Assembly: GCF_019134595.1 (NCBI RefSeq)
Contig: NZ_CP077770.1
Location: 261,001-325,000 of the forward strand
Reading direction: 5' to 3'
From: Pseudoalteromonas shioyasakiensis
Lineage (GTDB): Bacteria; Pseudomonadota; Gammaproteobacteria; Enterobacterales; Alteromonadaceae
DNA: 64,000 nt
The notes beneath the pieces are model-generated. The model did no database searches. It was given only the letters and a program-made list of their open reading frames with translations, and was not told where the DNA came from. Made by a program: the position numbers and the translations under genes. Below are positions 38,176 to 43,146 of the stretch, piece by piece. Each line of letters begins with the position of its first letter. Position 1 is the first letter of the stretch.

Positions 38176-38364
38176 CTAATCCTCCATGCCAAGTTTGCGT
38201 AAAATGGTGATCATTGGGCACCACTTAGTGAATGCCGATTGAATTAAGTTTAGAGCAATAAATACCGTAAACCAAATCCACAGCGGACTGTGAAACTGTT
38301 GTAGCAACAATGAAATACAGATCATTACACCAGCAATTAAGCGAAGCGCGTCATTTAGTTTCAT
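38176..38364 (-). CDS. DUF2892 (YgaP-type) small membrane protein
   Basis: 62-residue inner-membrane peptide with two membrane helices (about 8-24 and 27-43) and the family ending LNLIQSAFTKWCPMITILRKLG, matching the C-terminal membrane part of YgaP. A cysteine precedes the CPM motif. It lies just upstream of the rhodanese gene and divergent from an ArsR-type repressor, a context typical of sulfide/persulfide response operons. Confidence 0.9.
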   Translation of the reverse strand: MKLNDALRLIAGVMICISLLLQQFHSPLWIWFTVFIALNLIQSAFTKWCPMITILRKLGMED

Positions 38365-38400
38365 AATAAGACCTCGATAACAGAGTGATGTATTTAATAT

Positions 38401-38447
38401 ATTAGATAATACTACATTAGTAAATTCTAATATTAGACTTTTCTAAT
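38401..38447. promoter_or_regulatory. Tandem 16-bp ArsR-type operators between divergent operons
   Basis: Two abutting copies of ATTAG-N6-CTAAT occupy 38416-38431 and 38432-38447. A third, imperfect copy (ATTAG-N6-CTACA) occupies 38401-38416. The block sits between the rhodanese/DUF2892 operon and the ArsR/RND operon. A TATACT at 38457-38462 could be the -10 of the ArsR gene, so bound repressor would block it. The outer arms ATATATTAGA and TCTAATATAT also form an inverted repeat. Confidence 0.75.
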
Positions 38448-41800: not shown

Positions 41801-42095
41801 TAACTCACTTATTTTAGTTGAGTTTATTAACCAAGCTCGCGGCCAAGGTATGGCAATTAAACAGGCTTTAATTGCCGCAGGCACCGTGCGTATGCGCCCT
41901 GTGTTACTCACAGCGGGAACCACCTTATTAGGTAACTTGGTGATCACCCTAGATCCGGTATTTAGCGGTCTAGCGATTGCAATTATTTTTGGTATTGTGG
42001 CATCAACATTGTTCTCATTATTTGTTGTGCCGCTGGTTTATTATTTAGTGTTTGCAAAGGATGCAGCCAAAGAGGAACAAGCTCATGCAGGGTAA
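38808..42095 (+). CDS. RND efflux transporter permease subunit
   Basis: 1095-residue inner-membrane proton antiporter of the AcrB/RND superfamily. An N-terminal helix, two periplasmic porter domains and twelve membrane helices are present (for example FAVFTVVIFVGVFLGWRPAIVVG and the C-terminal VVRNSLILVEFINQARGQG). The membrane helix 4 motif reads LGLLVDDPITGIDNI, keeping two acidic residues for proton relay. The HME metal-efflux signature was not seen, so an organic substrate is more likely. It lies before its adaptor gene, the reverse of the common adaptor-then-pump order, and is directly downstream of the persulfide-type repressor. No outer-membrane channel gene is nearby. Confidence 0.94.
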   Translation: MSAIDNAVKNSLSGRLPVIIFIMSVLLGLMALKQTPREEEPQIVVPMLDIYVAAPNVEAPEVARLVTEPLEKLLAQLTGVEHIYSTTQSNAAVVTLRFEVGHDREQAILDTYAKLYSYQHTMASVISSWQIRPVEVNDVPIVMLGLFSKDPKLYDDYQLTRFANEIANSLQRIENTSEVKVIAGRTRQLTINLDASALAAHQTTLTDVYYALSVSNQLVNVGSVVEGKQQIALQVGDVLRSQSAIERLVVNVVNGKSVYLSDVAQVSDGPSEAQSYQWLAHSDNQQQLPLVTISVAKQAGTNAVAVANEVHSMMDSLSANLLPDEVGYTILRDYGQTANEKVNNLTSSLVFAVFTVVIFVGVFLGWRPAIVVGLAVPICYGITLTLDFAFGYTINRVTLFALILSLGLLVDDPITGIDNISRFLTKKGDKKQRIVDAMSEIRVALFMSTLTIMVAFIPLAFITGMMGPYMAPMAFNVPVSVMVSTIVAFFVTPWLAMKLLKAPVDDSMQLEANPHSLYERILSPLLESKGRAKLVLWTTLALFVASAMLPVMRAVPLKLLPFDNKNELQVLIDMPEGTSLEQTAAFTRQVQTITWQLNEVSEAAAYVGQPSSMDFNGMVRGYYRREAANLAELRVLLLDKTERDHQSHGVVMRLRAALAPLATDGIVIKVVEVPPGPPVLSTLVAEVYSEPFVDTDTHYQAALAVAARLKQEPHVVEVDTSIAANAPLQRFVTDKSKASLSAVSTQDIAQTLAIASHGQNVGVLYVSGETDPVDIKLQLPYQDRNQFAQLLALQVRGDRELAKTSDEFGLQSAPRPLVALSELGEFQHQDVAIPIMRKDQRNVVYVMAELNGRTPAEIIADVNADFGISADEFSQTDWQSRHFFNNGGSQAWQLPAGTDVTFSGEGEWRITIDVFRDMGIAFAFALTAIFIILRIQTNSASLSLIIMSAIPLTVIGIMPGFWLLNQFGERSIAGAPEPVLFTATAMIGMIALAGIVVRNSLILVEFINQARGQGMAIKQALIAAGTVRMRPVLLTAGTTLLGNLVITLDPVFSGLAIAIIFGIVASTLFSLFVVPLVYYLVFAKDAAKEEQAHAG

Positions 42096-43146
42096 ATCAA
42101 AACTTATTGGTTCAATTGTCGCGTTATCAGTGATCATTGTGGCGGTACTTTACATGGCGGGCAGTTTTTCTGATAAGCAAGCTGCAGGCATGAAAAACCC
42201 ATCGGCAAATGATTATACTGGTCAGTTAATGACAGTGACACTGGCAGATATTGCTCGTGATGAAATTGTACCGGGCACCGTGATTGCAAAACAAAATACG
42301 CAAATCTCTTCTCGTGTAATGGCACAAGTTGAGCGTTTAAATGTACGCGCTGGCGATACTGTAAAACAAGGTGACGTGCTAATTTCCTTACAGCAAGATG
42401 ACTTTAAAGCAGGACTTGCTCAAAGCGAAGCACAAATAAATGCGATTAATGCCTCGCTGACTCAAGCTGAGAAACAACTAAAGCGTATTAACGATTTATA
42501 CAAGCAAGGTTTGGTATCTGTTAGTGAATACGACGATGCAAAAGCAAGGTTCGATAATTTAACGGCGAACTTAGCGATTGCTAAGCAGCAGCAAACACAA
42601 GCGCAAGTTGCACTGAGTTTTACGCAAATTAAAGCGCCAATTTCAGGTGTTGTGGTAGAGCGTTTTGCAGAACCTGGCGATACCGCAACTCCTGGCACGC
42701 CATTACTCGCACTGTATAACCCACAGCAATTGCAATTAGCATTTAATGTCAGAGAACAGCAAGCAATTAAGCTGAATGTTGGTCAAACTCTAATGGTTAA
42801 ACTACCGGCTTTATCAACATCAATGCCTGCCACAGTGACAGAAATTGTGCCTGTTGCTGATAGTGCTGCGCGTAGTATGGAAATCCGTTTAGAAACAGAT
42901 GCCCAAACTGGGTTAATGCCTGGGCTTTATGCACAATTACAATTACCGCTCGCCACTGAAAAAGGGGTGTTGATTGACTCAAGCTGGGTGCATCAATACG
43001 GCCAATTGAGCATGGTCTATTTACTTGAAAATAATCAGATAGTGCGCCGCTATGTGCGCCTTGGCGAAATGGTCGATGGCCAGCAGCACATCGTTTCAGG
43101 TTTAAACCCAGGTGATGTGCTGGCTGTTGATTTTAAAACTAAATAA
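42085..43146 (+). CDS. RND efflux periplasmic adaptor (membrane fusion protein)
   Basis: 353-residue adaptor with an N-terminal membrane anchor (about 5-26), a lipoyl/biotinyl-like half (NTQISSRVMAQVERLNVRAGDTVKQGDVLISL), an alpha-helical hairpin (about 95-150), IKAPISGVVVERFAEPGD and a C-terminal beta-barrel part. It would link the RND pump to a TolC-type channel. The ATG at 42085 overlaps the pump stop codon by 11 bases and follows AGAGGAA; an earlier in-frame ATG at 42052 is less likely. Its 3' end overlaps the convergent nitroreductase. Confidence 0.93.
   Translation: MQGKSKLIGSIVALSVIIVAVLYMAGSFSDKQAAGMKNPSANDYTGQLMTVTLADIARDEIVPGTVIAKQNTQISSRVMAQVERLNVRAGDTVKQGDVLISLQQDDFKAGLAQSEAQINAINASLTQAEKQLKRINDLYKQGLVSVSEYDDAKARFDNLTANLAIAKQQQTQAQVALSFTQIKAPISGVVVERFAEPGDTATPGTPLLALYNPQQLQLAFNVREQQAIKLNVGQTLMVKLPALSTSMPATVTEIVPVADSAARSMEIRLETDAQTGLMPGLYAQLQLPLATEKGVLIDSSWVHQYGQLSMVYLLENNQIVRRYVRLGEMVDGQQHIVSGLNPGDVLAVDFKTK

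What the first reader, a model, noticed from the sequence alone, without database searches (positions are those of the whole stretch)
38176..43146. Persulfide-sensor-type repressor controlling an RND efflux pump and split YgaP genes
A BigR/YgaV-like ArsR repressor with both sensor cysteines (Cys32, Cys98) starts an operon with an RND permease and adaptor, and faces a DUF2892/rhodanese operon. Classical BigR operons handle sulfide oxidation. An RND pump under the same repressor suggests sulfane-sulfur stress or thiol-reactive compounds trigger efflux. The pump-before-adaptor order is also unusual.
Basis: partly seen in the sequence, partly recalled or inferred. Interest (0 to 1): 0.7.

Follow-up and report, generated by a model that had tools for sequence, protein, structure and literature searches.

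The report
Sulfur-stress switch controlling an efflux pump
A marine bacterium appears to keep a drug-pump-like exporter and two sulfur-handling genes under one sulfur-sensing repressor, and the pump belongs to a widespread family that often sits among sulfur genes, so it may serve sulfur stress rather than antibiotics.

Summary
In a Pseudoalteromonas genome, a two-cysteine ArsR repressor (C32, C98; closest solved relative HlyU) heads an operon with an RND permease and adaptor, and faces DUF2892 and rhodanese genes. The 133-bp gap holds two abutting perfect ATTAG-N6-CTAAT sites, each over the -35 of one candidate promoter. In 17 genus sequences the half-site columns are 98% conserved, the rest of the gap 51%. 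In the genus, 49 of 60 genomes carry the pump and 48 of those 49 have the repressor immediately upstream; two lineages lost the pump pair but kept repressor, rhodanese and operator. The permease forms one clade, apart from the genome's 15 other RND pumps, with a proteobacterial family (35-40% identical) that often lies beside DUF2892, two-cysteine ArsR, sulfide-quinone-reductase-like, YeeE or rhodanese genes (49 of 77 loci). Vibrio cholerae has a member. A second conserved operator precedes a Tll0287-like gene. Best reading: sulfane sulfur releases the repressor and induces rhodanese and pump together. Regulation is strongly inferred; the cargo is unknown. A 2025 paper already notes RND pumps beside such repressors in general terms, so this is a well-defined variant, not a new kind of system.

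The parts
37830..38174 (-). Rhodanese-domain protein, 114 aa, with Cys79 in an HCASSAR loop
   Evidence: PF00581 E 5.8e-13; cysteine positions; active-site motif recognised from memory
38176..38364 (-). DUF2892 / YgaP-like transmembrane protein, 62 aa; the only one found in the genome
   Evidence: PF11127 47.4 bits, cut-off 25.3; single copy
38401..38416 (.). Third, degenerate operator copy ATTAGATAATACTACA (2 mismatches)
38416..38431 (.). Left operator ATTAGTAAATTCTAAT, covering the -35 of the candidate divergent promoter
38432..38447 (.). Right operator ATTAGACTTTTCTAAT, covering the -35 of the candidate repressor/pump promoter
38434..38462 (+). Candidate promoter of repressor-pump operon (TAGACT, 17 nt, TATACT); the -10 is conserved
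   Evidence: scan match, 94% column identity at 38456-38461 in 17 sequences
38396..38424 (-). Candidate promoter of DUF2892-rhodanese operon (TTTACT, 17 nt, TATATT)
   Evidence: scan match only
38498..38800 (+). ArsR repressor with C32 and C98, persulfide-sensor type
   Evidence: PF01022; HlyU 4k2e E 1.2e-22; cysteine positions
38808..42095 (+). RND permease, HAE-type fold, 1095 aa
42085..43146 (+). Periplasmic adaptor (membrane fusion protein), 353 aa, no cysteine
   Evidence: TIGR01730 201 bits, cut-off 94.9
43145..43173 (-). Terminator-like stem between adaptor and the convergent nitroreductase gene
   Evidence: scan match on the minus strand

Best explanation
A reduced two-cysteine ArsR dimer sits on the tandem ATTAG-N6-CTAAT sites and blocks RNA polymerase at both divergent promoters. 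When sulfane sulfur (persulfides, polysulfides) rises, C32 and C98 become bridged through sulfur, the repressor leaves, and two operons switch on together: DUF2892-rhodanese, which handles sulfane sulfur, and repressor-pump-adaptor, which exports a sulfur-stress product, with the repressor limiting its own synthesis. Shown by sequence: the genes, the operon layout, the conserved operator, both cysteines, the clade and its sulfur neighbours. Inferred from relatives: persulfide sensing and DNA release. Inferred and open: that the pump's cargo is itself a reactive sulfur species or sulfur conjugate.
For: Repressor: HlyU is the nearest solved relative (4k2e, E 1.2e-22). HlyU reacts with persulfides but not with H2O2, forming a tetrasulfide that abolishes DNA binding (PMC10509353, passages). 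The C32 and C98 columns are invariant in an alignment of 10 sequences, the window and nine relatives from several families. Operator: half-site columns 98% conserved, rest of the gap 51%, none of 100,000 random column sets as high (17 sequences). At least one perfect site occurs in 20 of 20 pump-bearing genus upstream regions examined, 8 of 8 pump-less genus loci, and 5 of 5 two-Cys ArsR loci beside far-type pumps in other families. The HlyU site TAATTCAGACTAAATTA (PMC4330345) is related. In G033, the one pump-bearing genus genome without a local repressor gene, a perfect site and a TATATT box still lie about 110-140 bp before the pump. Pump: window-type and far-type permeases form one clade, support 100, apart from 15 own-genome RND pumps. 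Of 77 far-type loci with the permease located, 39 have DUF2892 within 5 kb and none further out in the fetched DNA; 19 have a two-Cys ArsR near, 0 far; 16 SQR-like near, 1 far; 49 of 77 have at least one sulfur marker.
Against: No binding, expression or transport data exist for this locus. The repressor scores 92.3 against a cut-off of 155 for NCBI's BigR model. The permease is only 35-40% identical to the far-type sequences that carry the widest sulfur context. In two genus lineages the pump is absent while repressor and rhodanese stay, so the pump is not essential to the response. 28 of 77 far-type loci show none of the markers tested within 5 kb. L059, the one window-type locus fetched from outside the genus, has its ArsR gene about 2.3 kb from the pump with other ORFs between and no operator site upstream of it. 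Candidate promoters in the scan are no more frequent than in shuffles (12 found, 11.2 expected), and single operator sites are at background in the genome (12 against 11 for the reversed pattern).
Confidence: 0.66

Rival explanations
1. The pump is a multidrug or thiol-reactive-compound exporter. The repressor is used as a general thiol alarm: electrophiles or organometals react with its cysteines, and the pump removes those compounds, not sulfur species.
For: The E. coli homologue YgaV controls ygaVP, which is derepressed by tributyltin as well as by sulfide, and a ygaV mutant loses H2S-dependent antibiotic tolerance (PMC9774250, passages). The fold is a complete AcrB/AcrD/AdeB-type drug pump.
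Against: None of the compounds tested was a substrate of VexLM, the V. cholerae pump that is probably a far-type member (PMC10225521, passage; the link is inferred). Neighbours of far-type pumps are often sulfur genes. HlyU did not react with H2O2.
Confidence: 0.22
2. The regulator is an activator or anti-silencer like HlyU at hlyA rather than a repressor, and sulfane sulfur switches the operons off.
For: The nearest solved relative, HlyU, activates hlyA from a site about 173 bp upstream (PMC4330345).
Against: Here each site covers a -35 hexamer of a candidate promoter, and the second genomic site lies 14 bp before an ORF start, a placing that suits a repressor. BigR and YgaV repress their own operons (PMC5823870 abstract, and PMC9774250 passages).
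Confidence: 0.07
3. The pump is a metal exporter of the CusA/CzcA type controlled by a metal-sensing ArsR.
For: TIGR00914 (CusA/CzcA) aligns over almost the full length, 232 bits; ArsR repressors are often metal sensors.
Against: The score is far below that model's cut-off of 701. The D411-D412 pair is invariant in 46 clade members, while 3 of the genome's own 15 other RND proteins have a glycine at the second place (that this marks metal pumps is recalled). The repressor has only C32 and C98 and no CXC motif.
Confidence: 0.03
4. The pump operon is a passenger: it sits behind the repressor by chance history and is read through only because of its position.
For: The pump was lost in two genus lineages without disturbing the neighbouring genes.
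Against: 48 of 49 pump-bearing genus genomes keep the arrangement; distant pumps of the same clade lie by such repressors with another gene order; G033 keeps an operator in front of the pump without a local repressor gene.
Confidence: 0.05

Closest known systems
HlyU (Vibrio), YgaV (E. coli), BigR (X. fastidiosa), SqrR (R. capsulatus): reactive-sulfur-sensing ArsR proteins
   Same: Winged-helix ArsR with the same two cysteines; AT-rich palindromic site with CTAA halves as in the HlyU site; sulfurtransferase genes next door
   Different: Main output here is an RND pump operon; two abutting sites serve two divergent promoters; below the cut-off of NCBI's BigR model
E. coli YgaV-YgaP
   Same: Same regulator type and the same two target domains, rhodanese and YgaP-like TM (ygaVP in PMC9774250)
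   Different: Here the two domains are separate genes on the opposite strand from the regulator, and a pump is added behind the regulator
X. fastidiosa / A. tumefaciens bigR operon
   Same: Two-cysteine repressor with sulfur transferase and a membrane exporter gene in its regulon (PMC5823870 passages)
   Different: There a fused DUF442-ETHE1 enzyme and a TauE-type sulfite transporter; here rhodanese and an RND pump. A protein that I take by eye for a persulfide dioxygenase lies elsewhere in this genome
RND pumps next to sulfane-sulfur ArsR regulators as mentioned by the Hyphomicrobium study (PMC12423496)
   Same: General statement that such regulators appear to act on RND efflux pumps (section 2.1 read)
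   Different: Their Table S1 and Figure S2 were not seen; no pump family, operator or experiment on the pump is given in the section read
V. cholerae VexLM
   Same: V. cholerae has 97-99% relatives of the V. metoecus far-type permease piece, and in V. metoecus it lies by ArsR, DUF2892, YeeE-like and CoADR-rhodanese-like genes; VexLM is the one Vex pump on the small chromosome, with no substrate among compounds tested (PMC10225521)
   Different: That this protein is VexM is inferred; locus tags VCA0638-0639 are recalled and occurred in none of the papers listed. Adaptor precedes pump there
MexK and TriC (P. aeruginosa) RND permeases
   Same: Among the best profile matches in the PDB (6vej taken as TriC from memory); MexK shares R643 and a GPPV motif
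   Different: MexK lacks F615, N616, V619, R620, R625, S647 and H648, which are invariant in this clade; the TriC alignment was not shown

Membership tests
Reactive-sulfur-sensing ArsR (SqrR/BigR/YgaV/HlyU) | ArsR winged helix | tested here: met
   PF01022 52.8 bits, cut-off 22
Reactive-sulfur-sensing ArsR (SqrR/BigR/YgaV/HlyU) | Two cysteines at the HlyU positions (Cys38/Cys104 in PMC4330345), no metal-binding CXC | tested here: met
   C32 and C98 align with the HlyU cysteines and are the only ones
Reactive-sulfur-sensing ArsR (SqrR/BigR/YgaV/HlyU) | Sulfurtransferase genes as neighbours | tested here: met
   Rhodanese and DUF2892 adjacent; rhodanese in 27 of 28 fetched pump-bearing genus loci, DUF2892 in 21 of 28
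Reactive-sulfur-sensing ArsR (SqrR/BigR/YgaV/HlyU) | Persulfide-driven loss of DNA binding | not testable with these tools
   Needs purified protein
NCBIfam BigR equivalog NF040642 | Score above the curated cut-off of 155 | tested here: not met
   92.3 bits
HAE-type RND permease (ACR_tran) | Family score over Pfam cut-off and full-length fold | tested here: met
HAE-type RND permease (ACR_tran) | Proton-relay residues (AcrB D407, D408, K940; recalled) | tested here: inconclusive
   D411-D412 invariant in 46; the lysine position appears to be R998, arginine in 46 of 46 clade members, against lysine in 8 and arginine in 0 of 15 own paralogues. Whether arginine works there was not tested
CusA/CzcA heavy-metal RND (TIGR00914) | Score above cut-off 701.45 | tested here: not met
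   232.4 bits
YgaP | Rhodanese and transmembrane domain in one protein | tested here: not met
   Two genes, 37830-38174 and 38176-38364
Far-type RND family (this study) | Shares a clade with the window permease to the exclusion of other RND pumps | tested here: met
   Support 100 (SH-aLRT) in a 49-row tree; only own-genome paralogues served as outgroup

The most novel reading that the evidence does not exclude
This clade of RND permeases is a dedicated arm of sulfane-sulfur physiology: it exports persulfides, polysulfides or sulfur conjugates delivered by rhodanese/DUF2892, a cargo class that I do not know for RND pumps. A charged periplasmic loop (F615, N616, R620, R625 and H648 in 46 of 46 clade members and 0 of the genome's 15 other RND pumps) would select anionic cargo, and orphan pumps such as the probable V. 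cholerae member would owe their lack of drug substrates to this.
Probability: 0.25. Interest if true: 0.78.

Novelty: new variant of a known kind. Interest (0 to 1): 0.5.

Why it matters
RND pumps are studied mostly as antibiotic exporters, and what many of them do in nature is an open question. Here one clade can be tied, by regulator, operator and gene neighbourhood, to the response to reactive sulfur. If the link holds, sulfide or polysulfide exposure would raise an efflux pump, a concrete route from sulfur stress to efflux that could be tested in harmless marine strains. It also proposes a role for orphan pumps for which no drug substrate has been found.

Tried and rejected
A single ATTAG-N6-CTAAT is no regulon marker: the genome has 12 perfect sites and the reversed control has 11. 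Of the ten sites outside this locus, 4 lie inside ORFs, 4 lie at ORF ends or between ORFs without lying upstream of one, 1 (L072) is 80 bp before one ORF but overlaps the end of another, and 1 precedes the Tll0287-like gene (mechanical ORFs of at least 80 aa). Metal-pump reading: rejected on score and residues. Search for a paralogous regulator: none in the genome at E 0.001. Search for a CoADR-rhodanese in this genome: weak matches only; for the SQR-like protein: none, but the sensitivity of that query was not controlled. Literature searches: Pseudoalteromonas + RND + rhodanese + ArsR 0 papers; DUF2892 + rhodanese + efflux 0; polysulfide + RND + efflux pump + export + sulfane sulfur 0. Cargo from the model: not attempted beyond listing residues, since a monomer model without ligand cannot show it.

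Limits of the counts. Of 80, 77 had a permease ORF that I could locate; for the tree I chose 24 and 23 passed the length filter. The genus tree used 31 of 36 loci plus the window; five were dropped for lacking a nitroreductase or repressor match. Of 13 permease matches outside the genus, 12 were fetched. BLAST labels can miss diverged genes, and the names CoADR, YeeE, SQR-like and persulfide dioxygenase rest on partial family scores or on eye: CoA-disulfide reductase 483 of 579 bits, SQR 107.5 of 525, YeeE partner 1 over its Pfam cut-off, the dioxygenase by eye only.

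Full report
What is there. In window 37830-43146 two operons face each other. To the left, on the minus strand, are a 62-aa YgaP-like transmembrane protein (DUF2892, 38176-38364) and a 114-aa rhodanese (37830-38174). To the right, on the plus strand, are a 100-aa ArsR protein (38498-38800), a 1095-aa RND permease (38808-42095) and a 353-aa periplasmic adaptor (42085-43146). Tight spacing (1 nt, 7 nt, and an 11-nt overlap, read) fits two transcripts, and a terminator-like stem, listed on the minus strand, follows the adaptor. The organism is Pseudoalteromonas by its nearest named permeases (93% to P. lipolytica).

The regulator. The ArsR protein matches HlyU best among solved structures (E 1.2e-22); X. 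fastidiosa BigR (3pqj, named Biofilm growth-associated repressor) and YgaV (3cuo) are further down, with others between. C32 and C98 are its only cysteines and both columns are invariant in an alignment of ten sequences, the window and nine relatives from several families. It scores 92.3 against a cut-off of 155 for NCBI's BigR model, so it is not filed as BigR itself. HlyU forms a tetrasulfide with persulfides, does not react with H2O2, and then loses DNA binding (PMC10509353, passages). BigR and YgaV repress operons that sulfide derepresses (PMC5823870 and PMC9774250, abstracts and passages). Persulfide sensing here is an inference from these relatives.

The operator. The 133-bp gap holds two perfect, abutting copies of ATTAG-N6-CTAAT (38416-38431, 38432-38447) and a degenerate third (38401-38416). 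The right copy covers the -35 of the candidate repressor/pump promoter (38434-38462) and the left copy the -35 of the candidate divergent promoter (38424-38396) (promoter matches alone are not above chance in that scan, 12 against 11.2). In an alignment of 17 genus sequences the 20 half-site columns are on average 98% conserved, the spacers 74%, the -10 region 94% and the rest of the gap 51%; none of 100,000 random sets of 20 columns reached the half-site value. Of 20 upstream regions from pump-bearing genus genomes examined, 20 have at least one perfect site and 18 have two sites (at most one mismatch each) starting 16 bp apart; of 8 pump-less genus loci, 7 have two perfect sites 25 bp apart and 1 has a single perfect site; of 5 two-Cys ArsR loci beside far-type pumps in other families, 5 have a perfect site; the one window-type locus fetched from outside the genus (L059) has none. 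The published HlyU site, TAATTCAGACTAAATTA, is a related AT-rich palindrome (PMC4330345, abstract and passages).

Evolution in the genus. Of 60 genomes (own plus 59 of the same genus) 49 carry the permease at E below 1e-100 (which scored at most 7 candidates per genome), and in 48 of these 49 the repressor lies directly upstream on the same strand (coordinates compared). In 28 fetched genus loci the adaptor follows the pump in 28, rhodanese is present in 27, repressor in 27, DUF2892 in 21 and the convergent nitroreductase in 23. In 8 of the 11 genomes without a pump match the same repressor and rhodanese remain, with the repressor now next to the nitroreductase. Of the other three, one has only a distinct YeeE-linked ArsR and two have no match. 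On a tree of nitroreductase, repressor and rhodanese (32 rows) the absence needs two changes and lies among pump-bearing branches, so two losses fit best. In G033 the local repressor gene is missing, yet a perfect operator and a TATATT box still lie about 110-140 bp upstream of the pump, which argues that the pump is a target in its own right.

The pump clade. The genome has 15 other RND permeases. In a 49-row tree the window-type permeases (6 rows) and a far type found in other families (28 rows) form one clade (support 100), apart from all 15. A scan of named genomes with far-type sequences gave 590 confirmed relatives, of which the best 80 were kept: Shewanella, Vibrio, Aeromonas, purple sulfur bacteria, Thioalkalivibrio, Gallionella, Rhodoferax, Hydrogenophaga and others. 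In the 77 loci with a located permease, DUF2892 lies within 5 kb in 39 loci and never further out in the fetched DNA (binomial p 2.5e-9); a two-cysteine ArsR within 5 kb in 19 and never further out; SQR-like proteins near in 16 loci and far in 1; YeeE/YedE-like near in 5 and far in 0; rhodanese-type near in 13 and far in 3; any of these near in 49 of 77, none in 28. Of 51 loci with at least 5 kb on both sides, 31 have DUF2892 and/or a two-cysteine ArsR. The adaptor is immediately upstream in 68; one locus (L148) has an adaptor match downstream, besides one upstream. The SQR-like label rests on a type III sulfide quinone reductase model well below its cut-off (107.5 of 525 bits), so it is weak. 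In the L060 locus the set is complete: YeeE-like pair, repressor, DUF2892, a CoA-disulfide-reductase-like protein (483 of 579 bits) with a rhodanese end, adaptor, pump. Of the 11 far-type loci fetched from the window's own order (L060-L070), 8 have DUF2892 and 5 a two-cysteine ArsR.

A possible second target. Of the ten other perfect operator-like sites in the genome, one (C2:288312) lies 14 bp before a gene for a Tll0287-like protein with a CxxCH motif, divergent from a thioredoxin-like gene that scores below its Pfam cut-off. Only 5 of 60 genomes have a match to this gene. The site is kept before the 90% identical orthologue; in the 75% identical one it lies in the 5' part of the open frame, before the likely signal peptide; it is absent before two 38-40% homologues. 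It is a lead, not a proof.

How it most likely works. Sulfane sulfur bridges C32 and C98, the repressor leaves the tandem operator, and rhodanese/DUF2892 and the pump are made together, with the repressor gene in the pump operon closing the feedback. A protein that I take by eye for a persulfide dioxygenase is encoded elsewhere in the genome (46% identical to the query), with none of the perfect sites near it. The regulatory steps are likely; the cargo is open. The strongest rival is a pump for thiol-reactive compounds, since ygaVP also answers to tributyltin.

What is known. A 2025 study says that sulfane-sulfur ArsR regulators appear to act also on RND efflux pumps, citing its Table S1 and Figure S2, which I could not see (PMC12423496, section 2.1 read). 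In the listings and passages seen I found no experiment on such a pump. V. cholerae has 97-99% relatives of the V. metoecus far-type permease piece; VexLM, the pump on its small chromosome, had no substrate among the compounds tested (PMC10225521, passages). That the two are the same protein is my inference. What is added here is the operator and its conservation, the loss pattern, the clade and the neighbour counts. I rate it a new variant of a known kind.

Noticed in passing
G000:C2:288312-288327 (locus L081:1501-1516): Perfect operator-like site ATTAGATATATCTAAT 14 bp before a Tll0287-like gene with a CxxCH motif, divergent from a thioredoxin-like gene; kept in two close orthologues.
   Followed up: partly
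L124 (G055:C1:2980000-2994000): Partial tandem duplication: a second copy of the repressor and a 257-aa piece of the permease upstream of the full-length pair.
   Followed up: no
L058 (G033) 4694-5001: Pump-bearing species without the local repressor gene but with a perfect operator and TATATT box before the pump.
   Followed up: partly
L147:8207-12150: Vibrio metoecus adaptor and permease frames are in pieces, while V. cholerae and other Vibrio have 1050-aa relatives.
   Followed up: no
L061, L062 and G004:C16: Permease matches containing one stop codon each; L062 still has a 1069-aa frame. L061 and L062 were left out of the permease alignments.
   Followed up: no
window 31022-35338: 1438-aa alpha-amylase/pullulanase-like lipoprotein with three similar C-terminal repeats (YIRGSLNDWGT type), recognised by eye.
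   Followed up: no
L114-L121 versus pump-bearing loci: Operator spacing differs with pump presence: 25 bp between site starts in 7 of 8 pump-less loci, 16 bp in 18 of 20 pump-bearing loci; shared ancestry may explain it.
   Followed up: partly
L066:3378-3818, L067:2892-3392: DSP-phosphatase-like proteins near far-type pumps; the first matches the BLH_phosphatase domain over its cut-off.
   Followed up: no
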